A DNA stretch of 64,000 nt from Nocardioides mangrovicus (GTDB taxonomy: Bacteria > Actinomycetota > Actinomycetes > Propionibacteriales > Nocardioidaceae), in the NCBI RefSeq assembly GCF_003674065.1, contig NZ_RDBE01000001.1:581614-645613 (forward strand), read 5' to 3'. Made by a program: the position numbers and the translations under genes. The notes under the pieces were generated by a model, which saw nothing but the letters and a program-made list of their open reading frames with translations, had not been told where the DNA came from and ran no database searches. Positions 33,289 to 56,916 of this stretch are shown piece by piece (position 1 is the first letter of the stretch; the number at the start of each line of letters is the position of its first letter).

Positions 33289-33291
33289 GGG

Positions 33292-33312
33292 CAGTGAATA
33301 TATATCCGCAGA
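33292..33312. promoter_or_regulatory. A+T-rich site upstream of unit A (candidate SorC operator)
   Basis: GTGAATATATATCCGCAG stands out in the GC-rich background, about 40 bp before the first substrate-binding-protein gene. Its ATATCC half resembles ATTCATATCC upstream of the GlpD-like gene and ATTCATATCG upstream of the E1 alpha gene. Candidate operator or promoter of the large transport/catabolic unit. Confidence 0.45.
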
Positions 33313-33346
33313 CGCCGACCGAGCGGCGCCTTCCGAGGAGAACCAG

Positions 33347-34333
33347 ATGACCCGCACCCAGGCCTTCCGGGCCGCCACCGCTCTCGCGACCGTCGCTCTC
33401 GCGGCCTCCGCGCTGTCCGCCTGCGGCGCCGGCGGCGCCGGCTCCGGGGGCAAGAAGGTCATCGGTGTGGCCGTCGCCGACCAGAAGTCGCTCTTCTACG
33501 TAGCCGAGGTGGCGGGCATCAAGGCCGAGGCGAAGAAGCGGGGCTACAAGATCAAGCTGGTCTCGGCCAACAACGACTCCAACCTGCAGATCAAGCAGGT
33601 CAACGACCTCATCACCCAGCAGGTGGGCTCGCTGATCTTCACCTCGCAGGACTCCACCGCCGCGGCCGCCGGCGTGAAGGCCGCCAATGCCGCCGACATC
33701 CCGGTGATCGCGGTCGACCAGCGCCCGGAGAACGGCCAGGGCAAGCTCGCCACCTACATCGCCACCGACAGCGTCAAGGCGGCCGACCAGCTGTGCACCT
33801 GGATGTTCTCCCAGATCGGCGGCTCCGGTGACATCGCGATCCTGCACGGGGTGCTCGGCTCCACCGCGGAGATCCAGCGGACCCAGGGGTGCAAGGACGC
33901 GCTGGCCAAGAACAAGAACATCAAGGTCGTCGCGCAGGAGACCGCCAACTGGGACGAGACCGAGGCCTACAAGGCCACCCAGAACATCCTCACCGCGCAC
34001 CCCGAGATCAAGGCCGTGTTCGCCGAGAGCGACGCGATGGGCCTGGGTGCGGCCAAGGCGGCCAAGGCAGCCAACAAGCAGATCGTCTCGGTCGGAATCG
34101 ACGGCTTCCCGACGATGTTCGACGGCATCAGCCAGGGGCTGACCCAGGCCACGATGGCCCAGCAGCCTTACAAGATGGGCAAGATCGCGGTCGACAACGC
34201 CATCTCCTTGATGACCGGCAAGGGCAGCGTGCCGAAGCTGCAGTACCAGAACACGGTGCTCATCAACAAGGACACGGTCGGCAACTACAAGGCCACGCAG
34301 TTCTACGGCCCGAACGCCAACTCGTTCAAGTGA
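33347..34333 (+). CDS. Sugar ABC transporter substrate-binding lipoprotein (RbsB type)
   Basis: 328-aa periplasmic-binding-protein fold of the ribose/xylose class. Lipoprotein signal: hydrophobic core to residue 22, then lipobox LSAC with C26. VIGVAVADQKSLFYVAEVAGIKAEA begins domain 1; the ligand-contact segment VIAVDQRPE and the NWDETEAYKATQNILTAHPEIKAVFAESDAMGLGA region are typical. AGGAG lies 7 nt before the ATG. It delivers a sugar or polyol to the permease encoded at 35913. Confidence 0.9.
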   Translation: MTRTQAFRAATALATVALAASALSACGAGGAGSGGKKVIGVAVADQKSLFYVAEVAGIKAEAKKRGYKIKLVSANNDSNLQIKQVNDLITQQVGSLIFTSQDSTAAAAGVKAANAADIPVIAVDQRPENGQGKLATYIATDSVKAADQLCTWMFSQIGGSGDIAILHGVLGSTAEIQRTQGCKDALAKNKNIKVVAQETANWDETEAYKATQNILTAHPEIKAVFAESDAMGLGAAKAAKAANKQIVSVGIDGFPTMFDGISQGLTQATMAQQPYKMGKIAVDNAISLMTGKGSVPKLQYQNTVLINKDTVGNYKATQFYGPNANSFK

Positions 34334-34347
34334 CGCCGGGCGCGACG

Positions 34348-35910
34348 ATGACTGCGCGAGGCGACCACCGCCGCGACGGTGCGGGCCTGGTCTGCCAGGA
34401 CCTGGTCAAGGCCTTCAGCGGCGTGACCGTGCTCAAGGGCGTCAGCTTCGAGGTGCGACCGGGCAGCGTGGTGGGCCTGATCGGTGAGAACGGCGCTGGG
34501 AAGTCCACGCTGAGCTCGCTGATCACCGGGGTGCTGCCGCCGACGTCGGGCACGATGCGGCTCGACGGCCAGCCCTACGCGCCGGCCTCACCGTCGGAGG
34601 CGCTGGCCAAGGGCGTCGTGCTCATCCACCAGGAGATCCGGCTCCTGCCCGAGCTCTCGGTGGCCGAGAACATCTTCCTCGGCCGGCTGCCGCAGCGCGG
34701 AGGCCGCATCGACCGGGCGCGGATGAACCGCGAGGCCACCGAGGTGCTCGGCTCCCTCGGCGTCGACCTCGACCCGCGCCGCGTGGTGGGCGGGCTGTCG
34801 ATGGCGCGCCAGCAGGAGATCGAGATCGCCAAGGCCATCAGCCGCAACCCCGAGTTCGTCATCTTCGACGAGCCGTCGGCCTCGCTCGGGGAGACCGAGA
34901 CCGAGCACGTGCTCGAGCGCATCCGCACCCTGCGCGAGCGGGGTACGGGCGTCGTCTACATCAGCCACCGCCTCGACGAGGTGCTCGACGTCGCCGACCA
35001 CGTCGTGTGCCTGCGCGACGGCCACCAGGTCGGCAGCTGGACCCGGGGCGACGTGACGCGGCAGGACCTGGTCAACGCAATGGTCGGGCGCGAGTTCACC
35101 TACGAGCACGTCGCACCGCGACCCAGCCGCGCCGAGACGGTGCTGGAGGTCGAGGACCTCGGCCGCACGGGCGTCTTCGAGCACATCGACTTCACGGTGA
35201 GCGCCGGAGAGGTGCTCGGCATCGCCGGGCTGGTCGGCGCCGGGCGCACCGAGGTGGTACGCGCGATCGCCGGCGTCGACAAGCACGAGACCGGCCGGGT
35301 CGTCATCGGCGGCCGCCCGCTCAAGGGCGGGCGCCCCAGCGAGGCCATCAAGGCCGGCATCGTCATGGTCCCCGAGGACCGCAAGAGCCAGGGCCTCCAC
35401 CTGGACCGCTCGGCCGAGGAGAACGTCGTGCTGCCGTGGGAGCGCGACCTGGCCGGCGGCGGGCTGATGACCCGCAAGCTGATCCGCCGGGTCGGCACCC
35501 AGCAGCGCGAGCGGCTCGACATCCGCGGCCGGATGGCGCTGCCCGTGAAGTCGATGTCGGGCGGCAACCAGCAGAAGGTCCTCATCGCCAAGTGGCTGGT
35601 CAAGGACCCCAAGGTGCTCATCGTCGACGAGCCCACCCGGGGCGTCGACGTCGGCGCCAAGATGGCGATCTACGAGATCATCCGCTCCCTGGCCGCCGAG
35701 GGCATGGCCGTCATCGTCGTCTCCTCCGAGCTGGAGGAGGTGCTCGGCCTGGCCCACCGGGTGCTCGTCATGGCCGGCGGCCGCCAGCAGGGCGTGCTCA
35801 CCCGCGACGAGGCCACCCCCGAACGCGTGATGGAGCTGGCCGTCCCGGGCGGCGCCACGAGCGAGTCCTTCGGCCACGACGAGTCGCTCGCAGCGACGGC
35901 AGAGAGGTAG
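34348..35910 (+). CDS. Sugar ABC transporter ATP-binding protein (RbsA type)
   Basis: 520 aa with two nucleotide-binding domains. First: Walker A GENGAGKST, signature LSMARQQE, Walker B VIFDEPSASLGETE. Second: degenerate Walker A GLVGAGRTE, signature MSGGNQQKV and Walker B LIVDEPTRGVDVGAK. The ATG at 34348 is preferred; a GTG at 34330 overlapping the preceding stop as GTGA is also possible. It energises the importer formed with its two neighbours. Confidence 0.9.
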   Translation: MTARGDHRRDGAGLVCQDLVKAFSGVTVLKGVSFEVRPGSVVGLIGENGAGKSTLSSLITGVLPPTSGTMRLDGQPYAPASPSEALAKGVVLIHQEIRLLPELSVAENIFLGRLPQRGGRIDRARMNREATEVLGSLGVDLDPRRVVGGLSMARQQEIEIAKAISRNPEFVIFDEPSASLGETETEHVLERIRTLRERGTGVVYISHRLDEVLDVADHVVCLRDGHQVGSWTRGDVTRQDLVNAMVGREFTYEHVAPRPSRAETVLEVEDLGRTGVFEHIDFTVSAGEVLGIAGLVGAGRTEVVRAIAGVDKHETGRVVIGGRPLKGGRPSEAIKAGIVMVPEDRKSQGLHLDRSAEENVVLPWERDLAGGGLMTRKLIRRVGTQQRERLDIRGRMALPVKSMSGGNQQKVLIAKWLVKDPKVLIVDEPTRGVDVGAKMAIYEIIRSLAAEGMAVIVVSSELEEVLGLAHRVLVMAGGRQQGVLTRDEATPERVMELAVPGGATSESFGHDESLAATAER

Positions 35911-35912
35911 CG

Positions 35913-37001
35913 ATGTCCACCACCAACCCGGCTCCCCAGCACGACTCGAGCACCTCAGAAGGGACGACCCCCACCGTGCCCGCACCCCGTTCCGCCGACG
36001 CCGCGCCCGAGACGCCCGAGACGACCGAGCCGGCGACCCGACAGACCCCGCGCGAGACCGCGTTGCAGTGGTTCCGGGCGCTGCCCGGCCCGCTGCTGGG
36101 CCTGATCCTGGTGGTGGTCGTGCTCAGCTTCCTCTCCCCGTACTTCCTCACCGAGCGCAACCTCATCAACATCGTCAGCCAGAACTCCGACATCGGGATC
36201 ATGGCGGTCGGGGCGGCGCTGGTGATCCTCATCGGCGGCATCGACCTCTCGGTCGGCTCGACGCTGGCGCTCTCGCTGATGACCACGGCGTGGCTGTTCA
36301 AGGTGCACGACGTCCCGTTCACGGTGTGCGTGGTGGCCGGCCTGATCGTGGGCGCGCTGGTCGGGCTGCTCAACGGCGTGCTCTCCACCTACGGCCGCAT
36401 CCAGCCGTTCGTGGCCACCCTGGCCACCATGTCGGCGGCGGCCGGCCTCGCGCTCTACGTCACCGACGGCAACCCCATCACCGACTTCCCGAACTGGTAC
36501 AACGCCGTCACCAGCAAGGAGATCCTCGGCATTCCGCTGCAGGTGTTCATCCTCATCGCGGTCTACGTCGTGGCCGCGTTCTGGCTGCGCTTCCGGCCCA
36601 CCGGCCGTGCCCTGTACGCCGTCGGCGGCAACGCCGAGGCCGCGCGCCTGTCGGGCATCAACGTCACCCGGACCAAGATCGCGGTCTACGTGATCGCCGG
36701 GCTGCTGGCCGCGCTCGCCGGCAACATCGTCGGCTCGCGGCTCGACTCGGCCCAGCCGACGGCCGGCACCGCCGACCTGCTCAACGTCATCGCCGTGGTC
36801 GTCATCGGCGGCGCCAGCCTCTCGGGGGGCTCCGGCGGGATGCTCAACACCTTCATCGGTCTACTCATCATCGGCGTGCTCAACAACGGCATGTCGCTGC
36901 TGAACGTCTCGCCCAACCTGCAGCCCGTGGTCATCGGCATCGCGATCATCGTGGCCGTCCTCACCGACCGCGGCACCCGTTCGCGCCTCGTGCACTCCTG
37001 A
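35913..37001 (+). CDS. Sugar ABC transporter permease (RbsC type)
   Basis: 362 aa. A long Pro/Thr/Glu-rich cytoplasmic N-terminus (about 45 residues) precedes eight to ten membrane segments. The characteristic GGIDLSVGSTLALS and AVGGNAEAARLSGI segments, and GGASLSGGSGGMLNT near the C-terminus, identify the BPD_transp_2 family. A homodimer would form the pore. Its stop overlaps the next start by one base. Confidence 0.9.
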   Translation: MSTTNPAPQHDSSTSEGTTPTVPAPRSADAAPETPETTEPATRQTPRETALQWFRALPGPLLGLILVVVVLSFLSPYFLTERNLINIVSQNSDIGIMAVGAALVILIGGIDLSVGSTLALSLMTTAWLFKVHDVPFTVCVVAGLIVGALVGLLNGVLSTYGRIQPFVATLATMSAAAGLALYVTDGNPITDFPNWYNAVTSKEILGIPLQVFILIAVYVVAAFWLRFRPTGRALYAVGGNAEAARLSGINVTRTKIAVYVIAGLLAALAGNIVGSRLDSAQPTAGTADLLNVIAVVVIGGASLSGGSGGMLNTFIGLLIIGVLNNGMSLLNVSPNLQPVVIGIAIIVAVLTDRGTRSRLVHS

Positions 37002-38404
37002 TGGAGGTCATGGACGAGGTCCGGGTCCTCCTGCGCGACGCCGATCCGGACGGTGAGCTGCCGCCGTGCCACCTGCGCTCACTGGTGCTCGGACGAGATG
37101 CGCTCGAGCAGGTTCCCGAGCTGCTCGACGTGCTGCTGCGCGAGACCGGGGCCGACGCCGACGGTCGGGTGGTGCTGCTGGTCGACCCGACGCTGATCGT
37201 GCGCGAGGGGGCCGACGTCAAGCTGCGCGCCGAGCAGCTGCTGGCCGAGCGCTTCGACACCGTCAAGGCCGTCCTCGACGACGGCCACGACGAGCTGCAC
37301 GTGGTGGACGAGGTCGTCGCCGCAGCAGCCGAGGCGGCCCGCGGCGCGGCGGCCGTGGTGGCGCTGGGCGGCGGCACCGTCAGCGACATCGGCAAGCTCG
37401 CGGTGGCCGCCTGCGAGCCGCCGCCGGTGCTGGTGACGCTGCAGACCGCCGCCTCCGTGGACGGCTACACCGACGACGTGTCGGTGCTGCTGCGCGACGG
37501 CGTCAAGCGCACGGTGCCCTCCCGGTGGCCCGACGCGGTGGTGGCCGACGCCCAGACGATCGCCGAGGCGCCGGTGGGCATGACCTGCGCCGGCTTTGGC
37601 GAGATGACCTCGATGCTCACCGCCCCGGCCGACTGGTACCTCGCCTCCCTGGTCGGCGCCTCCGGCTTCCACGACGGCCCGATCCGGCTGCTCGACCGCG
37701 TCGGCGACGGGCTGGCCCAGTGGTCGGTCGGCGTCGGTTCCGGCGATCCGGCCGCCGTCGAGCGGCTGACCCACGCGCTGGCGGTCCGCGGCATCGTCAC
37801 CGGCGTCGCCGGCACTACCGCCGCGCTCTCGGGCGTCGAGCACCTGGTCAGCCACATGCTCGACCTGCACCACGCCGAGCACGATCTGCGGATGGGCCTG
37901 CACGGGGCACAGGTGGGTGTCGGCGCCGTGGTGGCTGCGGCCTGCTGGGAGCTGCTCGCCGACCGGATGGCCGACGAGACACCGACACTGACCGCGGACG
38001 CGCTGGACGAGGACGCCGCCCACCAGCACGTGCTGGCCGCGTTCGGCCATCTCGACGAGCGGATCGTCGCCGAGTGCTGGAGCGACTACGCCGCCAAGCT
38101 GCGCCGACTCGACCGCGAGCGCGTCGAGGCGGTGCTGGGCGACTGGCCGCGACACGTGAAGCGGCTCGGCGAGCTGGTGCGTCCCAGCGCCGAGATCGCC
38201 GAACGGCTCGCGGCCGCGGGCGCCACCGCCTCCTTCGCCGCGCTCGACCCGGCCGTCGGGCCCGGCCTGGCGCGCTGGGCGGTGGCGAACTGCGCGCTCA
38301 TGCGCAACCGCTTCACCGTGGTCGACCTGCTGATGCTGCTGGGCTGGTGGGGCGAGGCCGAGGTGGACGAGGTCTTCGAGCGGGTCGCCCGGGTGACGTC
38401 ATGA
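37001..38404 (+). CDS. AraM/EgsA-type sn-glycerol-1-phosphate dehydrogenase-like protein
   Basis: 467-aa iron-containing-alcohol-dehydrogenase-fold protein. It has the NAD-binding GGGTVSDIGK (about residues 123-132), the TAASVDGYTDDVS substrate loop, GFGEMTSMLTAPADWYL and the metal-binding SGVEHLVSHMLDLHH (histidines near 279 and 283). AraM of Bacillus interconverts DHAP and glycerol-1-phosphate. Here, next to sugar kinases and transporters, it may oxidise a polyol phosphate. ATG chosen by the 1-bp overlap with the permease stop. Confidence 0.82.
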   Translation: MEVMDEVRVLLRDADPDGELPPCHLRSLVLGRDALEQVPELLDVLLRETGADADGRVVLLVDPTLIVREGADVKLRAEQLLAERFDTVKAVLDDGHDELHVVDEVVAAAAEAARGAAAVVALGGGTVSDIGKLAVAACEPPPVLVTLQTAASVDGYTDDVSVLLRDGVKRTVPSRWPDAVVADAQTIAEAPVGMTCAGFGEMTSMLTAPADWYLASLVGASGFHDGPIRLLDRVGDGLAQWSVGVGSGDPAAVERLTHALAVRGIVTGVAGTTAALSGVEHLVSHMLDLHHAEHDLRMGLHGAQVGVGAVVAAACWELLADRMADETPTLTADALDEDAAHQHVLAAFGHLDERIVAECWSDYAAKLRRLDRERVEAVLGDWPRHVKRLGELVRPSAEIAERLAAAGATASFAALDPAVGPGLARWAVANCALMRNRFTVVDLLMLLGWWGEAEVDEVFERVARVTS

Positions 38405-39915
38405 CGCGCGACTACGTCATCGGCGTCGACTGCTCCACCACCGCGGCCAAGGCGGTCGTGTGGAACGCCCACGGCGCCGCCGTCTCGCAGGCCCGGGCCA
38501 CCTTCGACCTCAGCCAGCCCCGACCCGGCTGGGGCGAGCAGAACGCCGAGGACTGGTGGACCGCGACGGCCACCGCCGTCCGCCGGGCGGTGCAGACGGT
38601 CGATGAGTCCCGGCTGGCCGCGATCTGCGTGACCCACCAGCGTGAGACCTTCGTGTGCCTGGACCGGGCGGGACGGCCGCTGCGCCCGGCGATGCTCTGG
38701 CTCGACACCCGCGCCACGGCCGAGGTCGACAAGCACGGGACCGACGAGGTGCACCGGATCACCGGCAAGCCGCCGAACCCCACGCCGGCCTGGTACAAGC
38801 TGCACTGGCTGGCGGCACACGAGCCGGAGACGCTCGAGCGCGTCGGCACCGTCACCGACGTCGGCGGCTTCCTCGTGCACCGGCTGACGGGGGAGTGGGC
38901 CACCTCGTGGGCCAGTGCCGACCCGCTCGGCGTGGTGGATCTGGAGAGCTTCGGCTACGACGCCGACCTGCTGCAGGCCGTCGGGCTGACGCCCGAGCAG
39001 ATGCCGGCGCTGGTGGCGCCGGGCAGCGTGGTGGGCGCCGTGCGCGACGACGTCGCCCGCGAGCTGGGCCTGCCCGACGGGCTGGCCGTGGTGGCCGGCG
39101 TGGGCGACGGTCAGTCGGCCCAGCTGGGCACCGGGGTCACCGCGCCTGGCCGGGCCTACCTCAACCTGGGCTCGGGGATCGTCTCGGGCACCTTCAGCCC
39201 CACCTACTCCTACGGGCGGGAGTACCGGACGCTGGCCGCCGCCGTGGCCGGCGGCTACACCCTGGAGACGTTCATCGGCGGCGGCACCATCAACCTGTCG
39301 TGGTTCGTGGAGAAGTTCGCCGGCGTCGACACCACCGCGCTGGGACTCGACCTCTCACCTGAGCAGGTGCTCGAGACCGCCGCGGCGCAGCTGCCGCCCG
39401 GCGCCGAGGGGCTGCTCGCGCTGCCGTACTGGACGGGCGCGCTCACGCCGTACTGGGACCACCACGCGCGCGGCGTGCTGGTCGGCCTCTCCGGCATCCA
39501 CGGCAAAGCGCACGTCTACCGCGCCCTGCTCGAGGGCATCGCCTTCGAGCAGCGGCTGCTCACCACCGGCGCGGAGGAGGCGCTCGCGCAGCCGGTGACC
39601 GACGTCGTGGCGCTGGGCGGCGGCTCCCGCAGCCCCGTGTGGTGCCAGATCATCGCCGACGTCATGCAGCGCCCCGTCCAGATCGTGCGCGAGCCCGAGA
39701 GCACCTGCCTCGGCTCGGGCATGCTCGCCGCGGCGGCGGCGGCGATCCATCCGAGTCTGCCGGAGGCCGCCACCGCGATGAGCGGCTGCGCGGCGGTGTA
39801 CGACCCCGACCCGGCCCGCGGCGAGACCTACGACGCGCTCTTCGAGGTCTACCGCGACATCTACCCGACCAACCGTGCGCTGTTCGCGCGTCTGGCGGCC
39901 GCGACCCATGCGTGA
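38401..39915 (+). CDS. FGGY-family carbohydrate kinase
   Basis: 504 aa. FGGY_N domain begins VIGVDCSTTAAKAVVWN with the phosphate-binding loop; ATP-binding FGGY_C domain has NLGSGIVSG, ALGGGSRSPVWCQIIADVM (the adenosine motif) and ESTCLGSGMLAA. Closest in layout to xylulokinase-like members of uncertain specificity. It would phosphorylate the imported sugar or polyol. Start overlaps the preceding stop as ATGA. Confidence 0.88.
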   Translation: MTRDYVIGVDCSTTAAKAVVWNAHGAAVSQARATFDLSQPRPGWGEQNAEDWWTATATAVRRAVQTVDESRLAAICVTHQRETFVCLDRAGRPLRPAMLWLDTRATAEVDKHGTDEVHRITGKPPNPTPAWYKLHWLAAHEPETLERVGTVTDVGGFLVHRLTGEWATSWASADPLGVVDLESFGYDADLLQAVGLTPEQMPALVAPGSVVGAVRDDVARELGLPDGLAVVAGVGDGQSAQLGTGVTAPGRAYLNLGSGIVSGTFSPTYSYGREYRTLAAAVAGGYTLETFIGGGTINLSWFVEKFAGVDTTALGLDLSPEQVLETAAAQLPPGAEGLLALPYWTGALTPYWDHHARGVLVGLSGIHGKAHVYRALLEGIAFEQRLLTTGAEEALAQPVTDVVALGGGSRSPVWCQIIADVMQRPVQIVREPESTCLGSGMLAAAAAAIHPSLPEAATAMSGCAAVYDPDPARGETYDALFEVYRDIYPTNRALFARLAAATHA

Positions 39916-40708
39916 CTACGACGGCTACCTCTTCGACCTCGACGGCACCATCTACCTGGGCGAGGAGCTGCTGGCCGGCGCGCTGGAGCTGCTGGACGGA
40001 CTGCACGAGCGGGGCCGGCGGACGTTGTTCCTCTCGAACAACCCCACCAAGGACCCGCAGATGTACGCCGAGAAGCTGACGCGGCTGGGCGTGCCCACCG
40101 AGCCGGCCGACGTCGTCAACACCGTCGTCACGATGACCGCCTGGCTGCTGCGGGAGGCACCGGGCGCCGGGGTGTTCGTGCTGGGGGAGGAGCCGTTGCT
40201 GCGCTCGCTGCGCGCGGCCGGCGTCCGGCTGACCGACGACCCGACCGAGATCGACGTCGTGGTCGCCAGCTACGACCGCTCCTTCGACTACCGCAAGCTG
40301 CAGGTCGCCTTCGACGCGATCTGGTTCCACCGCAGGGCGCGCCTGGTCACCACCAACCCCGATGCGTACTGCCCCCTGTCCGGCGGCCGCGGTGAGCCTG
40401 ATGCCGCCGCGGTCGTCGCCGCCATCGAGGCGAGCACCGGCGTCCGGTGCGAGGTCAACGTCGGGAAGCCGTCGCCGCTGATGCTGCAGACGGCGGTCGA
40501 CGTGCTGGGCCTGGACGCCCACGACTGCGTGATGGTCGGCGACCGGCTCCACACCGACATCGCGATGGCCGTCGACGCCGGCATCGACTCCGCGCTCGTG
40601 CTCACCGGGGAGAGCACCCGCGAGCACGTCGCGCGTCTCGGCGCCGACCGGCGCCCGACCTACGTCCTGGACCGCATCGACGACCTGCTGGTGGGAGCCC
40701 GCAGGTAG
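39908..40708 (+). CDS. HAD-IIA family hydrolase (NagD/phosphoglycolate phosphatase-like)
   Basis: 266 aa. HAD motif I is FDLDGTIYLG (nucleophile D10), motif II LFLSNNPTKD, motif III VGKPSPLML, motif IV MVGDRLHTDIAMA. The IIA cap contains the VVASYDRSFDYRKLQVAF stretch. Relatives dephosphorylate glycerol-phosphate, phosphoglycolate, UMP or p-nitrophenyl phosphate. Next to a glycerol-1-phosphate dehydrogenase-like gene, it may release a polyol from its phosphate or repair a misphosphorylated intermediate. ATG at 39908, 8 bp inside the kinase gene. Confidence 0.87.
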   Translation: MRDYDGYLFDLDGTIYLGEELLAGALELLDGLHERGRRTLFLSNNPTKDPQMYAEKLTRLGVPTEPADVVNTVVTMTAWLLREAPGAGVFVLGEEPLLRSLRAAGVRLTDDPTEIDVVVASYDRSFDYRKLQVAFDAIWFHRRARLVTTNPDAYCPLSGGRGEPDAAAVVAAIEASTGVRCEVNVGKPSPLMLQTAVDVLGLDAHDCVMVGDRLHTDIAMAVDAGIDSALVLTGESTREHVARLGADRRPTYVLDRIDDLLVGARR

Positions 40709-40753
40709 TCCGGCGCACCACCGCAGCGCATCACCTACTCGGAGGAGAAGCAC

Positions 40754-46629: not shown

Positions 46630-46643
46630 AGGGAACCGCAACG

Positions 46644-48107
46644 ATGACCGTCCTCAGCTCTCTCGAGCCCGCCGAGATCCTCGGCCACTTCGAGACCCTC
46701 GCCGGCATCCCGCGCGGCTCCGGCAACGAGCAGCAGGTGGCCGACTGGGTGGTCGCCTTCGCCCGCGAGCGCGGGCTGGAGGCCGAGCAGGACGCCAAGC
46801 ACTGCGTCCTGGTCCGCAAGCCCGGTCAGGGCGGCCTCGAGGACGCGCCGCCGCTGATCCTGCACGGCCACCTCGACATGGTCTGCGAGCGCAGTGAGGG
46901 CGTGGTCAAGGACTTCGCCACCGAGCCGATCGACTTGGTCGTCGACGGCGACTACATCAGCGCCGCCGGCACCTCGCTCGGCGCCGACAACGGCATCGGC
47001 GTCTCCTACATCCTCGCGCTGCTCGACGACCGCGAGATCGCCCACCCGCCGCTGGAGGCGGTGCTCACGGCCATGGAGGAGAAGGGCAAGGCCGGTGCGG
47101 GCCAGTTCGACTTCTCGCGGCTGACCGGCACCCGGATGATCGACTTCAACTGGATCACCGACCACGAGATCCTCGCCGGCTGCAGCGGCGACATCACCTT
47201 CGCCGTCGAGGTGCCAGCGGAGTGGGAGGACGTACCCGGCTCCCACGGGGCCGCGGTGCTGGTCAAGGTGCGCGGTCTCAAGGGCGGCCACTGCGAGTTC
47301 GACATCCACCTCGAGCGGGCCAACGCGTTGCTGCTGCTGGCGCGCACGCTCAACGCCGTCCAGGAGCGCTACGACGTGCGCCTGGCCCGCGCGCACGGGG
47401 GAGCGCAGAACAATGCCATCCCGGCCGACGCCGAGGCCGTGCTGGTGGTGCGGGACGAGGACGTCGAAGGCATCGGCGCGCTGGTCGCCGAGCTGGCCGG
47501 TGAGGTCCGCGCCGAGTACAGCGAGGCCGATCCGGCCGTCCGGCTCGAGGTGGAGCCGGCCGAGACGCCGCAGCGGGTGTTCTCCGCCGCGGCGACGCAG
47601 CGCTTCTCGCGGGTGACCTCGCTGGTGCCCAACGGCGTGCTGAGCTGGAACCTGGTGGCCCGAGGCGTGGTCGAGTCCTCCAACAACCTCGGCACGGTGC
47701 GCGCCACCGACGAGGGCGTGGAGCTCACCGCCACCATCACCTCGGCCGTCACCTCTCGCAAGCACGAGGTGCTCGACCGCGTGCGCTCGCTGGCGGCGCT
47801 GGCCGGCGGCGGCGTGCGGGTGGAGACGCAGGGCCTCGACGCCCCGGAGTTCCCCTACCGACCGGACTCGCCGCTGCTGGCGACCGCGGTCGGGGCCTAC
47901 CGCGACGTCGTCGGCGAGGAGCCCGAGGTGCACGTCTCGCAGTGCAGCCTCGAGCTGGGCTTCTTCAGCCGTCGGGTGCCCGGCCTGGACGTCATCTCGA
48001 TCGGCACCGAGCTGCACGACCTGCACTCGCCGGCCGAGCGCGTCAGCCACGTCTCCGTGGCGAAGGTGTGGCCGCTGGTCCGCGAGGTCGTGAGCCGGCT
48101 GCGCTGA
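46644..48107 (+). CDS. pepD: Aminoacyl-histidine dipeptidase (PepD, M20 family)
   Basis: 487-aa di-zinc peptidase. Metal and catalytic segments: LILHGHLDMVCE (His and Asp, about residues 73-84), GTSLGADNGIGVSYILALL (bridging Asp) and the Glu-Glu pair in TAMEEKGKAGA, which replaces the more common DEExGMxGA. The C-terminal histidine ligand is in GTELHDLHSPAERV. PepD cleaves Xaa-His or Xaa-Xaa dipeptides. It follows the second transporter by 14 bp, so the imported compound may carry an amide bond, or the gene may be a passenger. Confidence 0.85.
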   Translation: MTVLSSLEPAEILGHFETLAGIPRGSGNEQQVADWVVAFARERGLEAEQDAKHCVLVRKPGQGGLEDAPPLILHGHLDMVCERSEGVVKDFATEPIDLVVDGDYISAAGTSLGADNGIGVSYILALLDDREIAHPPLEAVLTAMEEKGKAGAGQFDFSRLTGTRMIDFNWITDHEILAGCSGDITFAVEVPAEWEDVPGSHGAAVLVKVRGLKGGHCEFDIHLERANALLLLARTLNAVQERYDVRLARAHGGAQNNAIPADAEAVLVVRDEDVEGIGALVAELAGEVRAEYSEADPAVRLEVEPAETPQRVFSAAATQRFSRVTSLVPNGVLSWNLVARGVVESSNNLGTVRATDEGVELTATITSAVTSRKHEVLDRVRSLAALAGGGVRVETQGLDAPEFPYRPDSPLLATAVGAYRDVVGEEPEVHVSQCSLELGFFSRRVPGLDVISIGTELHDLHSPAERVSHVSVAKVWPLVREVVSRLR

Positions 48108-48154
48108 TGCCCACCCACCCCTTGCACGTGATGCCCGTCACCGCATAGCATCGA

Positions 48155-48184
48155 GATTCATACACAGAATGAATATTCATATCG
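48155..48184. promoter_or_regulatory. A+T-rich palindromic site upstream of unit B (candidate SorC operator)
   Basis: ATTCAT at 48156-48161 and the perfect 12-bp palindrome ATGAATATTCAT (48169-48180) followed by ATCGG. The ATTCATATC half-site recurs upstream of the GlpD-like gene. It lies 16-45 bp before the E1 alpha start and is the only strongly A+T-rich stretch nearby. Confidence 0.55.
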
Positions 48185-48200
48185 GCTCAGCGAGGAACAC

Positions 48201-49184
48201 ATGACCTCCCCAGACCAGACGACGCTGCTGGAGATGCAGCGACGCATGCTGCGCATCCGGCGCTTCGACGAGCGCGCCTCGAAGATGGTCAAGCGCGGCC
48301 AGATCCCCGGCACGGTGCACACCAGCATCGGCCAGGAGGCGCAGGTGGTCGGCGCGGCGATGACGTTGGACGACGGCGACTACATGACCGGCAACCACCG
48401 CAGCCACGGCCACCCGATCGCCAAGGGCTCCCCGCTCGCCCCGCTGATGGCCGAGCTGGTCGGCAAGGCCGGCGGCGTCTGCGGCGGCAAGGGCGGCTCG
48501 CTGCACCTGGCCGACTTCAAGGTCGGCAGCCTGGGGGAGTCGGGCATCGTCGGTTCTTCCATCCCGATCGCCACCGGCGCCGCGCTCTCGAGCAAGGTGC
48601 TGGGCAACGGCAAGGTGTCGATGGCCTTCTTCGGCGACGGCGCCGCCAATCAGGGCTGCCTGTACGAGGCGATGAACCTGGCCGGCGTGTGGGACCTGCC
48701 GGTGGTCTTCCTCTGCGAGAACAACCAGTACGCGCTCTCCACGCCCGCCCACACGGTCACCTCCGGCGTCATCGCCGAGCGCGCGGCCGGGTTCGGCATC
48801 GCCGGCGAGCGGGTCGAGGACGGCCAGGACGTCCTGGCTGTGCACGCCGCGGCGCAGGCGGCCGTCGAGCGCGCCCGCAGCGGCGGCGGGCCGACGCTGC
48901 TGGAGGTCGTCACCTACCGCTACAACGAGCACTCCGAGGGCCTGCGTCTGGGAACGGACTACCGCAACGCCGAGGAGAAGGAGACCTGGGTGGGGCGCGA
49001 CCCGATCGCGCAGTTCCGCCGCCACCTGGCTCAGGAGGGCGTCGCGACCGAGGAGGAGCTCGACGCGCTCGAGCAGGAGGTGCTCGACGAGGTAGAGCAG
49101 GCCTTCGAGTTCTCCCAGGAGAGCCCCTACCCCGAGCCCGAGGTCGCCTTCGCCGACCTCTACACCGAGCCGATCGGAGCCTGA
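48201..49184 (+). CDS. TPP-dependent dehydrogenase E1 alpha subunit (acetoin/2-oxo acid type)
   Basis: 327 aa. MRRMLRIRRFDE-like opening, GTVHTSIGQEAQVVGAAM, the YMTGNHRSHGHPIA loop with the histidine expected near TPP, and the TPP motif GDGAANQGCLYEAMNLAGVWDLPVVFLCENN. The serine/threonine phosphorylation-loop region reads YNEHSEGLR. Closest in layout to AcoA-type acetoin dehydrogenase rather than pyruvate dehydrogenase; acetoin, acetol-like or a 2-oxo acid are possible substrates. GAGGAA precedes the ATG. Confidence 0.88.
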   Translation: MTSPDQTTLLEMQRRMLRIRRFDERASKMVKRGQIPGTVHTSIGQEAQVVGAAMTLDDGDYMTGNHRSHGHPIAKGSPLAPLMAELVGKAGGVCGGKGGSLHLADFKVGSLGESGIVGSSIPIATGAALSSKVLGNGKVSMAFFGDGAANQGCLYEAMNLAGVWDLPVVFLCENNQYALSTPAHTVTSGVIAERAAGFGIAGERVEDGQDVLAVHAAAQAAVERARSGGGPTLLEVVTYRYNEHSEGLRLGTDYRNAEEKETWVGRDPIAQFRRHLAQEGVATEEELDALEQEVLDEVEQAFEFSQESPYPEPEVAFADLYTEPIGA

Positions 49185-49187
49185 GCC

Positions 49188-50258
49188 ATGGCCACCACCA
49201 CGATGAGCTTCCTGGGTGCCATCGGCGCCGCGCAGCGCGAGGCGATGGAGGCCGACGAGCGCGTCGTCATCATCGGCGAGGACGTCGAGGCGAACGTCTA
49301 CGGCACGACCGGCGGCGGCAAGTCGCGCAAGGACAAGGGCGACTTCCTCGAGCTGTTCGGCGCCAACCGCATCCGCAACACCCCGATCTCCGAGGAGGTC
49401 ATCGTCGGCGCCGCGGCGGGTGCGGCCATGACGGGCCTGCGGCCGATCGTCGACCTGTCGTACTCCAGCTTCCTCTACATGGCCATGGACCAGTTCGTGA
49501 ACCAGGTGGCCAAGAACCGCTACATGTTCGGCGGCCAGGCCTCGCTCCCGGTGGTGTTCCGCTCGGCGATGTTCTACGGCCTCTCGACCGGCGCGCACCA
49601 CTCCGACCGGCCCTACCCGATGTTCATGAACGTGCCGGGCCTGAAGATCATGGTGCCCTCCACGCCGGCCGACGCGAAGGGCCTGCTGCGCACCGCGGTC
49701 GACATGGACGACCCGGTGCTGACCTTCGAGGCCTGCATGCTGTGGGGCCTCAAGGGCGAGGTCGAGGAGGACGAGTACCGCATCCCGTTCGGGCAGGCCG
49801 CGATCGCCCGCGAGGGCACCGACGTGACGGTCGTGGCCATCGCCACCGCTGTGCCCGAGGCGCTCAAGGCGGCCGAGACGCTGGCCGAGGACGGTGTCTC
49901 GGTCGAGGTGATCGACCCGCGGACGCTGGTGCCGCTCGACTCCCGCACGATCTTGGAGTCGGTGGCCAAGACCGGCCGGCTCGTCGTGGCCGACCCCGCG
50001 CACCGCACCTGCTCCGCGGCGGCCGAGATCGCGGCCATCGTGGTCGAGGAGGCCTTCGACTCCCTCAAGGCCCCCATCGCGCGGGTCACCACGCCGGATA
50101 CGCAGATCCCGTTCAGCCCGGCGATCGAGAAGCCGCTCTACCCCAACCGCGAGTCGATCGGCGAGGCGATCCGCCGTGTGACCGGCGAGCGCGGCGCGTC
50201 GGTGCCCGAGAGCCCGCAGGGCATCGACGACGAGCTGTCCACCCAAGCCCATCGCTAG
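49188..50258 (+). CDS. TPP-dependent dehydrogenase E1 beta subunit
   Basis: 356 aa, 3 bp after E1 alpha. Transketolase pyrimidine domain with IIGEDVEANVYGTTGG and the TPP-aminopyrimidine glutamate in NTPISEEVIVGAAAGAAMTGLRP; C-terminal transketolase domain with VEVIDPRTLVPLD. A longer-than-usual tail (about 30 residues) follows. It forms the alpha2-beta2 E1 with its neighbour. Confidence 0.9.
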   Translation: MATTTMSFLGAIGAAQREAMEADERVVIIGEDVEANVYGTTGGGKSRKDKGDFLELFGANRIRNTPISEEVIVGAAAGAAMTGLRPIVDLSYSSFLYMAMDQFVNQVAKNRYMFGGQASLPVVFRSAMFYGLSTGAHHSDRPYPMFMNVPGLKIMVPSTPADAKGLLRTAVDMDDPVLTFEACMLWGLKGEVEEDEYRIPFGQAAIAREGTDVTVVAIATAVPEALKAAETLAEDGVSVEVIDPRTLVPLDSRTILESVAKTGRLVVADPAHRTCSAAAEIAAIVVEEAFDSLKAPIARVTTPDTQIPFSPAIEKPLYPNRESIGEAIRRVTGERGASVPESPQGIDDELSTQAHR

Positions 50259-50280
50259 ACCCCAACCCGAGGAGAACCAC

Positions 50281-50523
50281 ATGCCGAGTGTCGACGTCCT
50301 GCTTCCCCAGTGGGGGATGGGCATGAGCGAGGGCACCATCACCAGCTGGCTCAAGGCCGTCGGCGACACCGTCGCCGAGGACGAGCCGCTGGCCGAGGTC
50401 GAGGCCGAGAAGGTCGAGGAGACGCTGGAGGCCCCGGCCAGCGGCACGCTCGCCGAGATCCTGGTCCAGGAGGGGGAGACCGTCGAGGTCCGCACCCTCG
50501 TGGCCCGCATCGAGACGGCCTGA
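50281..50523 (+). CDS. Free-standing lipoyl-domain protein
   Basis: 80 aa, a complete lipoyl/biotinyl beta-barrel and nothing else: LPQWGMGMSEGTITSWLKAVGD, the hairpin EAEKVEETLEAP carrying the lipoylated lysine (K43), and GTLAEILVQEGE. In usual E2 proteins this domain is joined by a linker to a subunit-binding domain and the catalytic core. Here the core is a separate gene (51379) with an aldolase gene between. GAGGAG precedes the ATG. Confidence 0.88.
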   Translation: MPSVDVLLPQWGMGMSEGTITSWLKAVGDTVAEDEPLAEVEAEKVEETLEAPASGTLAEILVQEGETVEVRTLVARIETA

Positions 50524-50527
50524 GGTC

Positions 50528-51382
50528 ATGGCCCAGGTCGACCCGAAGGGTCTCGTCGAGGCCGCCGCGGCCGGCGGCTACGCCGTCGGCGCCTTCAACA
50601 TGCACAATCCGGAGACCACCGAGGCGCTGCTGCTCGGCGCCGAGCAGGCCGCCTCGCCGGTGTTCCTCCAGGTGGGCCGCGCCCTCGTCCCGCACGTCGG
50701 GTTGCGCAAGGCCTACGAGATGACACGTCGCATCGCCGAGGAGTCCGAGGCCGAGTACGTCATCCACCTCGACCACGGTCCCTGGGACGAGGTCTTCGAG
50801 GCCATCCGCCTCGGCTTCACCTCGATCATGTACGACGGCGCGCACCTGCCCTTCGAGGAGAACATCGCCACCACGCGCCACGTCGTGGAGGTGGCGCACT
50901 CCTTCGGCATCCCGGTCGAGGCCGAGCTGGGCCGCATCCCCGACGCCGACCAGCCGGTCGACGACTGGACCGCCTACTACACCGACGTCGCCGAGGCCGA
51001 GCGGTTCGTGGCCGAGACCGGCGTGGACCTCCTGGCCGTCTCGGTGGGCATCGTGCACGGCGTGCCGCTGGCCGACCCACAGCCGCTGGACATCCAGCGG
51101 ATCAAGGAGATCAAGGCCGTCACCGGCGTCCCGCTGGTGCTGCACGGCGCCTCTGGCGTGCCCGACGCCGAGATCACCGCCGCGATCGACGCCGGCGTGC
51201 ACAAGTTCAACGCCGACACCGACCTGCGCCACGCCTTCCGAGCCGGCATCGAGGACGTGTGGAAGCAGGGCGACCGACAGCTGGAGGAGGCGATGGCCGA
51301 GGGCCGCCGCCGGATGGTCGCCGCCACGGTGGGGAAGATGCGCGTCTACGGCTGCGCCGGCACCGCAGGAGGCGCGGCGTGA
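50528..51382 (+). CDS. Class II fructose-bisphosphate/ketose-bisphosphate aldolase family protein
   Basis: 284 aa. Zinc ligands are expected in VIHLDHGP (His, about residue 80), VSVGIVHGVP and VLHGASGVP; the DHAP-binding NADTDLRHAF is near the C-terminus. Family members cleave fructose- or tagatose-bisphosphate or related ketose phosphates to DHAP plus an aldehyde. AELGRIPD replaces the usual E-x-G segment. Its position inside the dehydrogenase gene set suggests that one cleavage product, or a compound derived from it, goes to the E1/E2 complex. Confidence 0.85.
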   Translation: MAQVDPKGLVEAAAAGGYAVGAFNMHNPETTEALLLGAEQAASPVFLQVGRALVPHVGLRKAYEMTRRIAEESEAEYVIHLDHGPWDEVFEAIRLGFTSIMYDGAHLPFEENIATTRHVVEVAHSFGIPVEAELGRIPDADQPVDDWTAYYTDVAEAERFVAETGVDLLAVSVGIVHGVPLADPQPLDIQRIKEIKAVTGVPLVLHGASGVPDAEITAAIDAGVHKFNADTDLRHAFRAGIEDVWKQGDRQLEEAMAEGRRRMVAATVGKMRVYGCAGTAGGAA

Positions 51383-52038
51383 GCGAGGGCACCACGACGC
51401 CGCTCAAGGGCATCCGCCGTACCGCGGCCCGCCGCATGGTGGCGGCCTGGGAGGCGCCGGTCTTCCACCTGGTCGTCGAGGTCGACATGACCACCGCACT
51501 GGCGGTCAAGGAGCGCGAGCCCAGCGCCACCGTCACCGACGCACTGCTCCAGGCGTGCGCGGCCGCGCTCGGCAAGCACCCCGACCTCAACGCCCACTAC
51601 GGCGAGGAGTCGGTCACCTGCTTCGAGGAGGTGAACCTGGGTCTGGCCGTGGCCACCGAGGCCGGCCTGATGGTGCCGGTGATCCCCCACGCCGGCTCGC
51701 GCGACCTGGCCTCGCTGGCCGCGGCGCGCAAGGACGTCGCCGGCCGGGCGCGGGAGGGCAAGCTGACGATGGACGACGTCACCGGCGGCACCTTCACGGT
51801 CTCGAACCTGGGCATGATGGGCATCGACCGCTTCGACGCGATCCTCAACGTGCCGCAGGTCGCGATCCTGGCCGTGGGCAGCACCCGGCAGCGCCAGGTG
51901 TGGCCCGGTCCCGACGGGGGTGACCCGCAGTGGCGCCCGATCGCCGAGCTGACGCTGACCTGCGACCACCGGGCCGTCGACGGGGCCACCGGGGCCGGGT
52001 TCCTGGGCACGCTGCGCGAGCGGCTCGAGCAGGGCTGA
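51379..52038 (+). CDS. 2-oxo acid dehydrogenase E2 catalytic core without lipoyl domain
   Basis: 219 aa. The sequence begins directly at the acyltransferase core (LKGIRRTAARRMVAAWEAPVF) and ends with the active-site CDHRAVDGATGAGFL (His and Asp of HxxxDG). GTFTVSNLGMMGIDRFDAILN is the conserved trimer-core segment. There is no lipoyl domain and no peripheral subunit-binding domain. GTG start, 4-bp overlap with the aldolase. It must rely on the separate lipoyl protein at 50281. Confidence 0.88.
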   Translation: MSEGTTTPLKGIRRTAARRMVAAWEAPVFHLVVEVDMTTALAVKEREPSATVTDALLQACAAALGKHPDLNAHYGEESVTCFEEVNLGLAVATEAGLMVPVIPHAGSRDLASLAAARKDVAGRAREGKLTMDDVTGGTFTVSNLGMMGIDRFDAILNVPQVAILAVGSTRQRQVWPGPDGGDPQWRPIAELTLTCDHRAVDGATGAGFLGTLRERLEQG

Positions 52039-52039
52039 G

Positions 52040-52783: not shown

Positions 52784-52785
52784 GG

Positions 52786-53742
52786 TCAGGAGACCAGGTA
52801 CTCCGCGGTGACGGTGTCGGTCACCAGCGTGTCGACGTAGCCGCCGGCCAGGGCCGCGCGGATCGCGGCGTGCTTGCGCTCGCCGCCGGCGACCGCCCAC
52901 CGGCGTCGGGCCGACTTCAGCTGCTCGCGGGTGACGCCGATGACCAGCTCGTCGAGCTCGCCGTCGATGGCGTTGCCGTCAGCGTCGAGGAAGTGCAGGC
53001 ACACCTCGCCGACGGCGCCGCGGTCGCGCATCTGCTTGAACTGCTCGTGGGTGAAGAAGTTGTCGCCCGCGGTCAGCGCGGGGTCGACCTCGGCGGCGCC
53101 GATACCCACCAGGGCGAGGTCGATGTGGTCGAGCATCGCCAGCGCCTGCTGGGCGTAGACGTCGCGGCTGACCATCAGCTCACGCATCTCGGCGCTGGCC
53201 ACCACGCCGGGAGTGCGCAGGAACACCGCCTGCGCGTCGGCCAGCGTGGCCAGCTGACGGGTGGAGTAGGCGGCGTCGTGCTGCAACGACGGCGGCCCGA
53301 GGTCGCCGAGCATCTCCACCACGTGGGTGGTCTTGGTGCGCAGCGGCGCGAGGTCGTCGACCAGCACCCGCAGCGTCTGGCTCCAGGAGGTGAAGCCGAT
53401 GGTGGGGGCGTCGAAGGTCACGTCGCCCAGCAGCGTGCCCATGGCGTGGGCGAGGTCGCGGGTGAGCTCGGCGGAGTCCTGGCTGACGACGTCGATGACG
53501 TGCACCTCGCGGACCGGGTAGCGCTGCTCCACGGCGTCCTCGAGGTCGCCGAAGATGTGCGGCGGCACCGCGACGACGGTGCGCACGATGCCGGACTCCT
53601 CGGCCTGGGTGAGCAGCCGGGAGACCCGCGACTGGCTGATCTGGAGCCTGCTGGCAATGTCGGTCTGCCGCATGCCGTGGGTGTGGTAGAGCCGCGCGAC
53701 CTTCGTCATCAGACGGGTCTGCTCGTCGGCCATGGCGGTCAT
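52786..53742 (-). CDS. SorC/DeoR-family sugar-binding transcriptional regulator
   Basis: 318 aa. N-terminal helix-turn-helix: KVARLYHTHGMRQTDIASRL then QISQSRVSRLL (about residues 14-45). The rest is the SorC effector domain related to phosphosugar isomerases, with IGFTSWSQTLRVLVDDL and VGIGAAEVDPALTAGDNFF. Members sense phosphorylated sugars or polyols; EryD, the erythritol-operon repressor, belongs here. It diverges from the GlpD-like gene and probably binds the inverted repeat between them. ATG at 53733 is an alternative start. Confidence 0.9.
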   Translation of the reverse strand: MTAMADEQTRLMTKVARLYHTHGMRQTDIASRLQISQSRVSRLLTQAEESGIVRTVVAVPPHIFGDLEDAVEQRYPVREVHVIDVVSQDSAELTRDLAHAMGTLLGDVTFDAPTIGFTSWSQTLRVLVDDLAPLRTKTTHVVEMLGDLGPPSLQHDAAYSTRQLATLADAQAVFLRTPGVVASAEMRELMVSRDVYAQQALAMLDHIDLALVGIGAAEVDPALTAGDNFFTHEQFKQMRDRGAVGEVCLHFLDADGNAIDGELDELVIGVTREQLKSARRRWAVAGGERKHAAIRAALAGGYVDTLVTDTVTAEYLVS

Positions 53743-53783
53743 CCTAGGTTGACAGGGGCGGTGTGACGGGCATTACGCTACAT

Positions 53784-53812
53784 CTGCATTCATATCCAGC
53801 ATAGATATGCAG
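53784..53812. promoter_or_regulatory. Inverted-repeat operator between SorC and GlpD-like genes
   Basis: CTGCAT (53784-53789) and ATGCAG (53807-53812) are perfect outer arms; the inner TCATATC-CAGC-ATAGAT is A+T-rich. The right arm touches the AGGAGG ribosome binding site of the GlpD-like gene, so a bound regulator would block transcription or initiation. Its ATTCATATC half matches the site at 48176-48184. Confidence 0.65.
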
Positions 53813-56899: not shown

Positions 56900-56916
56900 G
56901 GTCGCAGACTGACCGT

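What the first reader, a model, noticed from the sequence alone, without database searches (positions are those of the whole stretch)
33292..53812. Three A+T-rich sites suggest one SorC regulon over a 24-kb catabolic cluster
Against a very GC-rich background, the upstream regions at 33292-33312, 48155-48184 and 53784-53812 share ATTCATATC/ATATATCC-like cores, and two contain clear inverted repeats. They precede the three transcription units around a SorC-family regulator. This ties two importers, two kinases, two polyol-phosphate dehydrogenases, an aldolase and a dehydrogenase complex into one apparently undescribed system.
Basis: partly seen in the sequence, partly recalled or inferred. Interest (0 to 1): 0.75.

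Follow-up and report, generated by a model that had tools for sequence, protein, structure and literature searches.

The report
A sugar-type repressor's three-promoter regulon
A 24-kb block of genes for taking up and breaking down an unidentified polyol-like compound in an actinobacterium carries the same paired repressor-binding site at all three of its promoters, and relatives that keep the genes in a different order keep the site too, so the block is very probably switched by one regulator.

Summary
A motif matrix learned only from 25 relatives' loci, window excluded, ranks the three sites 1-3 in the 64-kb window. The real unit is a 14-16-bp imperfect palindrome, TGAA-N6-TTCA, present as a tandem pair exactly 19 bp apart: 33275-33309, 48146-48180 and 53778-53812. 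Pair scores are 19.0, 31.3 and 23.4; the maximum in 100 simulated 64-kb sequences is 7.9. In the 4.1-Mb genome, GNATNNATATNC occurs at 5 distinct places, 4 of them in these promoters. In four relatives a related pattern occurs at 7 places, all in the orthologous cluster. Only one SorC-family protein was found in the window's genome at E<=1e-10. The half-sites match those of B. subtilis DeoR (PMC11229326, passages read). Best explanation: a DeoR-type SorC tetramer represses three operons and itself by binding across about -12/+22, and is released by a phosphorylated intermediate. The substrate stays unknown; the kinase and dehydrogenase of unit C are paralogues of a separate GlpK/GlpD-like pair. 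As a regulon it is a new member of a known kind; no paper on the pathway was found.

The parts
33275..33309 (+). Operator of unit A: proximal copy 33294-33309 (GTGAATATATATCCGC, strong), distal copy 33275-33290 (weak)
   Evidence: Held-out matrix 14.9 bits (non-palindromic) / 18.9 (palindromic); tandem score 19.0; GAATATATATCC unique in genome at up to 1 mismatch; the same 12-mer in the orthologous promoter of G175
48146..48180 (+). Operator of unit B: proximal copy 48165-48180, distal copy 48146-48161, 19 bp apart
   Evidence: 22.3 and 12.0 bits; tandem score 31.3
53778..53812 (+). Operator of unit C, shared with divergent SorC gene: proximal copy 53797-53812, distal copy 53778-53793
   Evidence: 15.0 and 10.2 bits; tandem score 23.4
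33244..33249 (+). Probable -35 TTGACT of unit A
   Evidence: The one promoter-like site found in 33000-52900 (0.4 expected); TTGAC in 22 of 35 homologous promoters, window's three included, vs 1.7 in shuffles
48122..48127 (+). Probable -35 TTGCAC of unit B
   Evidence: By eye, position relative to operator as in relatives; not found by the consensus scan
53749..53754 (+). Probable -35 TTGACA of unit C
   Evidence: By eye; outside the stretch scanned
33347..34333 (+). Importer 1 substrate-binding protein (ribose/allose type)
   Evidence: PF13407; NCBIfam RbsB 152.6 bits (cut-off 337)
34348..35910 (+). Importer 1 ATPase
35913..37001 (+). Importer 1 permease
37001..38404 (+). Glycerol-1-phosphate-dehydrogenase-like Fe-ADH
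   Evidence: PF13685; NF002022 109 bits (cut-off 413)
38401..39915 (+). FGGY kinase 1 (xylulokinase-like)
   Evidence: TIGR01312 291 bits (cut-off 380)
39875..40708 (+). HAD-IIA phosphatase
   Evidence: TIGR01460 128 bits (cut-off 100)
40754..41995 (+). Epoxide hydrolase (EHN family)
   Evidence: PF06441; 255 bits to PDB 5f4z; sequence
41992..43122 (+). Importer 2 substrate-binding protein
   Evidence: PF13407
43119..44117 (+). Importer 2 permease a
44114..45619 (+). Importer 2 ATPase
45616..46629 (+). Importer 2 permease b
46644..48107 (+). M20 dipeptidase (aa-his-dipept subfamily)
   Evidence: TIGR01893 445 bits (cut-off 344)
48201..49184 (+). TPP-dependent E1 alpha
   Evidence: TIGR03182 331 bits (cut-off 394)
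49188..50258 (+). TPP-dependent E1 beta
   Evidence: NF006667 291 bits (cut-off 321)
50281..50523 (+). Free-standing lipoyl domain, 80 aa
   Evidence: PF00364
50528..51382 (+). Class II ketose-bisphosphate-type aldolase
   Evidence: TIGR00167 228 bits (cut-off 216)
51379..52038 (+). E2 acyltransferase core without lipoyl domain
   Evidence: PF00198
52040..52783 (+). SDR dehydrogenase (no match of 45% identity or more in the 25 relatives' loci)
   Evidence: NF004774 346 bits (cut-off 360)
52786..53742 (-). SorC-family (DeoR-type) regulator
   Evidence: PF04198; aligns over residues 7-317 to B. subtilis DeoR 8r7y
53823..55415 (+). GlpD-like FAD polyol-phosphate dehydrogenase
   Evidence: NF008899 345 bits (cut-off 360)
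55412..56899 (+). GlpK-like FGGY kinase 2
   Evidence: NF000756 544 bits (cut-off 498)
56896..57624 (+). Lipoate-protein-ligase-like protein
   Evidence: PF21948 27.5 bits (cut-off 27.0); no NCBIfam match at 1e-20

Best explanation
The three sites are operators of the DeoR-type SorC regulator encoded at 52786-53742. Each operator is two copies of a TGAA-N6-TTCA-type palindrome 19 bp apart; the stronger copy is just downstream of the inferred transcription start and the weaker one overlaps the inferred -10 box. One SorC tetramer (two dimers) is proposed to bridge the two copies and block RNA polymerase at units A, B and C and, by the shared intergenic region, at its own gene. A phosphorylated intermediate made by one of the two FGGY kinases would loosen the tetramer and induce all 21 catabolic genes together. 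The regulon imports a polyol-like substrate, phosphorylates and oxidises it and cleaves it with the aldolase and the TPP/lipoyl complex to central metabolites. Shown by computation: the motif copies, their pairing, their near-exclusivity to the cluster, their conservation, and a single SorC-family candidate at the threshold used. Inferred: binding, repression, inducer, start sites, substrate and reaction order.
For: Held-out de novo matrix gives the three sites as the top three of the window. Tandem-19 scores 31.3, 23.4 and 19.0 against a maximum of 7.9 in 100 simulated windows. In a choice of 14 of the 25 relatives' loci the mean score 19 bp upstream of the main site is +1.6 over 44 regions, next best offset -15.5. 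Site of 9 bits or more upstream of E1a in 15 of 16, SBP1 6 of 6, SBP2 17 of 18, GlpD 17 of 20, EH 11 of 16 and SorC 21 of 26 regions (palindromic matrix: GlpD 12 of 20, EH 10 of 16, the others the same); none in G1PDH 4, HAD 9, FBA 10, PepD 8, FGGY2 9, LplA 4, ATP1 5, ATP2 9 and E2 1. Genomes: own, 4 of 5 places in the cluster; four relatives, 7 of 7 distinct places in the cluster; the 21 genomes of the genus other than G000, G004 and G071 have 4 distinct places in all. One SorC-family protein in the genome at E<=1e-10, query the G175 orthologue. SorC aligns end to end with DeoR, whose printed operator begins ATTGAACAAAATTTCAA, which I read as TTGAA-N6-TTCAA, and which binds as a tetramer on a two-part operator (PMC11229326, passages). 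Several distant SorC loci (36-49% identity) have the motif close to SorC, L045 with the 19-bp pair (no shuffle control made there).
Against: No binding, footprint or expression data. Four of the five orthologous clusters from the same family also hold a second SorC (46-50% identical to the window's) that could read the same sites; the window genome and G004 show only one. The distal copy at unit A is weak, and in relatives some promoters lack a good distal copy (for example G040 EH, L035 SBP2, L024 GlpD). Seven of the 25 training loci are Cryobacterium. Some regions lack a site: 11 of the 57 examined, some of which look internal to gene runs. Among non-leading genes, PERM2a 4 of 17, Lipo 5 of 13 and FGGY1 3 of 5 reach the threshold with the non-palindromic matrix and none with the palindromic one. 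Spacing differs from DeoR (22) and CggR (20), as I count them in the printed operators. Of the distant SorC loci several have no strong site at all (L054, L059, L066, L070, L077, L078: best 8.5 bits or less). With the stricter pattern GAATANNTATNC the window genome has one place, and the reversed control also has one.
Confidence: 0.85

Rival explanations
1. The A+T-rich sequences are only promoter -10 regions, which stand out against 71% G+C, and share letters by chance.
For: They lie close to the start codons, and a TTG-type -35-like element begins 42-53 bp upstream of the main copy in 33 of 35 promoters.
Against: The conserved unit is a 16-bp palindrome found twice at a fixed 19 bp; the -35 distance varies while the 19-bp pair does not; the motif is nearly absent from the rest of five genomes, each of which must have very many promoters.
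Confidence: 0.03
2. The sites are read by another regulator, for example the second SorC (SorC-B) of the relatives, with the window's SorC having another target.
For: SorC-B sits directly upstream of E1a in G040, G175, G055 and G005.
Against: The window genome shows no second SorC-family protein at E<=1e-10 and G004 shows one only, yet both keep the operators at SBP1, E1a and GlpD; a site lies in the SorC-A/GlpD intergenic region.
Confidence: 0.08
3. SorC is an activator rather than a repressor of the three units.
For: Not tested here; some SorC-family proteins are activators (recalled).
Against: The operator pair lies downstream of the -35-like element and across the inferred -12/+22 region, a position that suits repression.
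Confidence: 0.06
4. The cluster is an ordinary glycerol or erythritol utilisation locus.
For: Unit C is a GlpK-GlpD-like pair; an erythritol operon of Brucella is cited in the SorC paper's reference list; its SorC-family regulator EryD is recalled.
Against: GlpK and GlpD homologues at 39-42% identity lie together on another contig. In the unit C kinase and in all 21 of the 25 relatives' loci that hold it, a valine stands where the two other kinases of the genome have phenylalanine (that this residue lines the glycerol site of E. coli GlpK is recalled). Known erythritol operons have no TPP/lipoyl complex (recalled). Ery sequences were not compared.
Confidence: 0.15

Closest known systems
Bacillus subtilis DeoR and its dra-nupC-pdp operator (SorC family)
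   Same: Full-length alignment; palindrome TTGAA-N6-TTCAA; two-part operator for a tetramer near the promoter; regulator gene next to its target (PMC11229326, passages)
   Different: Spacing 19 against 22 bp (my count); operator at about -12 to +22 (inferred) rather than -60 to -21; three target units; NCBIfam DeoR equivalog not met (182.9 of 420 bits)
Bacillus subtilis CggR operator
   Same: Two palindromes in tandem, 20 bp apart by my count, downstream of the start site
   Different: Other class of DNA-binding domain and other repeat (CGGGAC); glycolytic target
Lsr autoinducer-2 system
   Same: SorC-family repressor, ribose-type importer, FGGY kinase
   Different: LsrR model 103 of 486 bits; LsrK model 186 (kinase 1) and 99 (kinase 2) of 528; no LsrF/LsrG relatives named
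GlpK-GlpD glycerol pathway
   Same: Kinase plus FAD phosphate dehydrogenase pair
   Different: Paralogues of another such pair in the genome; altered residue in the aligned substrate-site segment
Pyruvate/acetoin dehydrogenase complexes
   Same: E1 alpha, E1 beta, lipoyl domain, E2 core
   Different: E2 split into a free lipoyl domain and a core separated by an aldolase gene; no E3 in the window cluster; no NCBIfam cut-off met

Membership tests
SorC family (DeoR subclass) | C-terminal phosphosugar-binding domain PF04198 | tested here: met
   169 bits, cut-off 27
SorC family (DeoR subclass) | DeoR-type N-terminal HTH continuous with the effector domain | tested here: met
   phmmer alignment of residues 7-317 to DeoR 8r7y; segment ISQ-RVSRLL invariant but for one column in 7 sequences
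SorC family (DeoR subclass) | Two-part operator of palindromes about two helical turns apart | tested here: met
   19-bp tandem in window and relatives; comparison operators from PMC11229326
SorC family (DeoR subclass) | Tetramer on DNA | not testable with these tools
   -
SorC family (DeoR subclass) | Release by a phosphorylated sugar or intermediate | not testable with these tools
   -
B. subtilis DeoR equivalog | NCBIfam NF053881 cut-off | tested here: not met
   182.9 of 420 bits
Glycerol kinase GlpK | NCBIfam cut-offs | tested here: inconclusive
   Subfamily NF000756 met (543.9 of 498), equivalog TIGR01311 not met (523.9 of 590)
Glycerol-3-phosphate dehydrogenase GlpD | NCBIfam NF008899 cut-off | tested here: not met
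   344.7 of 360 bits
Pyruvate dehydrogenase E1 | NCBIfam TIGR03182 cut-off | tested here: not met
   330.9 of 393.9 bits
Epoxide hydrolase (EHN type) | EHN domain and catalytic Asp motif | tested here: met
   PF06441 119 bits; GGDWG, HGWP and GGHFAP segments in the sequence (catalytic roles recalled)
Lsr (AI-2) system | LsrR and LsrK models | tested here: not met
Erythritol (Ery) operon | EryA-EryB-EryC-EryD orthology | not tested
   No Ery reference sequences compared

The most novel reading that the evidence does not exclude
The regulon encodes an undescribed catabolic route in which a polyol larger than glycerol is phosphorylated and oxidised to a ketose phosphate, and the TPP/lipoyl complex cleaves an alpha-hydroxyketone thiolytically, in the manner of acetoin dehydrogenase, to an acyl-CoA and an aldehyde, with dedicated lipoylation by the ligase-like protein. 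The epoxide hydrolase would feed it from an epoxide or conjugate brought in by importer 2, as an optional entry branch.
Probability: 0.2. Interest if true: 0.75.

Novelty: new member of a known kind. Interest (0 to 1): 0.5.

Why it matters
It gives a precise regulator-to-operator assignment for an actinobacterial catabolic island that I found no paper on, and that recurs in Nocardioides, Streptomyces, Pseudarthrobacter, Arthrobacter, Sinomonas, Cryobacterium, Salinibacterium and Agromyces records. The operator pair marks the regulon's limits in such genomes, so the missing substrate can be sought through one reporter assay. The epoxide hydrolase is 79-83% identical in the 17 of 25 relatives' loci in which it was seen, strong conservation for an enzyme that other clusters lack in the stretch read (G004, G175). 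The free-standing lipoyl domain beside an aldolase gene suggests an unusual dehydrogenase complex.

Tried and rejected
Rejected: the 9-mer ATTCATATC as the binding unit (it falls in different arms at sites 2 and 3); plain -10 boxes; glycerol as the obvious substrate (another GlpK/GlpD-like pair); an Lsr-type AI-2 system. Considered and left at low probability: isoprene epoxydiol, 2-methyltetrol or deoxyxylulose catabolism; I named no isomeroreductase in the cluster, and the listings (15 of 83 shown; 10 of 39 shown) link no such genes. The epoxide hydrolase as a core step of every cluster was considered and dropped on re-check: it is not in the stretches read of G004 and G175. The palindrome at 20763-20778 was considered as a fourth site and set aside: no partner at 19 bp (tandem score 6.7), and it precedes a run with an AtuA-type gene and its own TetR gene.

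Led nowhere: genome-contig scan with the single SorC sequence (none confirmed); papers on this gene set (0 papers; nothing on this cluster in the titles and abstract starts listed). Only PMC11229326 was opened, by passages. The Conexibacter frames L045:8356-9858 and L045:18524-19480, which I chose by hand, matched no family, so the SDR-like tblastn hit there is unconfirmed. An order-wide search with the SorC profile matched 51 of 391 genomes at E<=1e-80; I did not look at the neighbourhoods of the new ones.


Full report
OBSERVATION. The SorC gene 52786-53742 is divergent from unit C. Each run begins just downstream of one site.

CHANCE. The window lies in a 4.1-Mb genome. ATTCATATC occurs twice in it, both here, but about 1.5 are expected from composition (my arithmetic), so the count alone says little. 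The degenerate pattern GNATNNATATNC has 5 distinct places in the genome, 4 of them in the three promoters. GAATATATATCC with up to one mismatch has one.

RELATIVES. SorC orthologues (56-75% identical) were found in 5 of 293 other genomes of the family at E<=1e-60, besides one 39% relative, and in one more distant genome (50%) at E<=1e-90 in a class sample of 393. A scan of named genomes with the alignment A1 gave 61 loci. By my reading of the maps 25 of them (L023-L045, L080, L082) hold further genes of the cluster, some only a few; four of the 25 (L023, L025, L029, L033) are the same contigs as family genomes above. Gene order differs between genomes. Within the stretches read, the window, G055 and G005 have both importers, G004 and G175 importer 1 only, G040 importer 2 only; the epoxide hydrolase is in G040, G055 and G005 and not in G004 or G175. 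So importer 2 and the hydrolase look like an optional module.

HELD-OUT MOTIF. Upstream regions (196 sequences from 25 loci, window excluded: 5 family genomes and 20 of the named loci) gave, by EM, tGAATAtTtATTCa. That matrix scores the window sites 22.3, 15.0 and 14.9 bits, ranks 1-3; expected per 64 kb 0, 0.05 and 0.07 in 60 Markov simulations. The palindromic matrix ranks them 1, 4 and 2; rank 3 is 20763-20778. In relatives, at 9 bits or more, the site is at the leading genes (E1a 15 of 16, SBP1 6 of 6, SBP2 17 of 18, GlpD 17 of 20, EH 11 of 16, SorC 21 of 26; with the palindromic matrix GlpD 12 and EH 10, the rest the same) and in none of the G1PDH, HAD, FBA, PepD, FGGY2, LplA, ATP1, ATP2 and E2 regions (59 in all); PERM2a 4 of 17, Lipo 5 of 13 and FGGY1 3 of 5 score with the non-palindromic matrix and 0 with the palindromic one. 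In the window the epoxide hydrolase and importer 2 follow the phosphatase gene without an own site among the top hits, as expected for a fused unit.

TANDEM OPERATOR. In 14 of the 25 loci, chosen to thin near relatives, a second copy stands 19 bp upstream of the main one: mean score +1.6 over 44 regions, next best offset -15.5. Of 57 regions 11 had no main site and were dropped; 46 remained, and SorC regions often count the same DNA as the divergent GlpD or SBP1 region. Anchored on the main copy, 38 promoters (35 from relatives, 3 from the window) show the two palindromes as the only blocks of columns above 0.35 bits. In the window the best three 19-bp pairs are the three operators (31.3, 23.4, 19.0); next come a shifted register of one of them (11.4) and 6.7 at 20744; the maximum in 100 simulations is 7.9. 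TTGAC is in 22 of 35 promoters (1.7 in shuffles) and a TTG-type element begins 42-53 bp upstream of the main copy in 33 of 35, so I infer that the pair covers about -12 to +22. TGTG-N8-CAC, a CRP-like sequence, is in 12 of 35 (0.06 in shuffles) (the 35 are 32 from relatives and the window's 3).

WHICH REGULATOR. A search of the window genome with the G175 orthologue finds one SorC-family protein at E<=1e-10. G040, G175, G055 and G005 have a second one in the cluster, 46-50% identical to the window's. In G004, G040, G175 and G005, GAATANNTATNC has 7 distinct places, all in the cluster. With this pattern the window genome has one place. Among 24 genomes of the genus, the 21 other than G000, G004 and G071 have 4 distinct places, no more than the reversed control gives in them; 20 of those 21 are shown without a close SorC, and G119 is not shown in its capped list. 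The SorC aligns over its length with B. subtilis DeoR. The paper on DeoR and CggR (PMC11229326, passages) prints the DeoR operator, in which I read TTGAA-N6-TTCAA, the consensus palindrome here, and describes tetramers on two-part operators and phosphosugar effectors. Of 36 loci of more distant relatives scanned (L045-L079 and L081; L080 in the same call is an orthologue), several carry the motif close to SorC (L045 as a 19-bp pair, L047, L048, L049, L064, L069), others only kilobases away or not at all (no shuffle control).

PATHWAY. The unit C kinase passes the GlpK subfamily cut-off, but homologues at 41-42% lie on another contig beside a GlpD homologue of 39%. The kinase has valine at 273 in the window and in all 21 of the 25 relatives' loci where it was found, where the genome's two other GlpK-like kinases have phenylalanine; at 135 it has phenylalanine in 19 of the 21 (tyrosine in G005 and L034, as in the two others). 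The Conexibacter kinase of L045 has serine and leucine there. That these positions line the glycerol site of E. coli GlpK is recalled, not tested. I infer a polyol other than glycerol. In L026 a beta-keto-acid cleavage enzyme, a lipoyl-synthase-like radical SAM protein and a PF00144 serine hydrolase lie beside the cluster, and in L034 an E3-like flavoprotein; similar frames in other relatives were judged by eye. The window's SDR has no match of 45% or more in the 25 loci. The substrate cannot be named from these data.

NOVELTY. A SorC-family repressor with a tandem operator is a known kind; this is a new member with a three-operon regulon. No paper on the gene set appeared in the open-access library (of which long listings were seen in part); most subscription journals are not covered. 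On re-check the epoxide hydrolase turned out not to be in every cluster, so the novel case now treats it as an optional branch; its odds are kept, since the claim no longer needs it.

Noticed in passing
20763-20778: GTGAATGGTGATTCAC, a near-perfect palindrome (TGAAT-N4-ATTCA), just upstream of an acyl-CoA synthetase gene that opens a run with biotin carboxylase and AtuA-type genes and a TetR gene at 32176-32772; no 19-bp partner. Probably another regulator's operator.
   Followed up: partly
50281-52038: E2 of the dehydrogenase complex is split into a free 80-aa lipoyl domain and a 219-aa core, with an aldolase gene between them; the same order is seen in G004, G040, G175 and G055, while G005 has other genes between.
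   Followed up: partly
33253-33267: CRP-like TGTG-N8-CAC between the -35 and -10 regions (placed by eye); the pattern is in 12 of 35 homologous promoters. Unit C has only the TGTG half.
   Followed up: partly
L014:13507-14439, L018:12606-13523, L020:8162-9088, and G175:C31:233465-234394: A second SorC gene, 46-50% identical to the window's, directly upstream of E1a in relatives, not found in the window genome.
   Followed up: partly
L026:11163-12110, L026:2245-3144, L026:3183-4196: A BKACE enzyme, a PF00144 serine hydrolase and a lipoyl-synthase-like protein beside the cluster in Pseudarthrobacter.
   Followed up: partly
L045:9851-11131: Conexibacter arvalis has SorC beside E1a-E1b-lipoyl, an importer and a GlpK-like kinase, with two 19-bp operator pairs: a possible minimal version.
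   Followed up: partly
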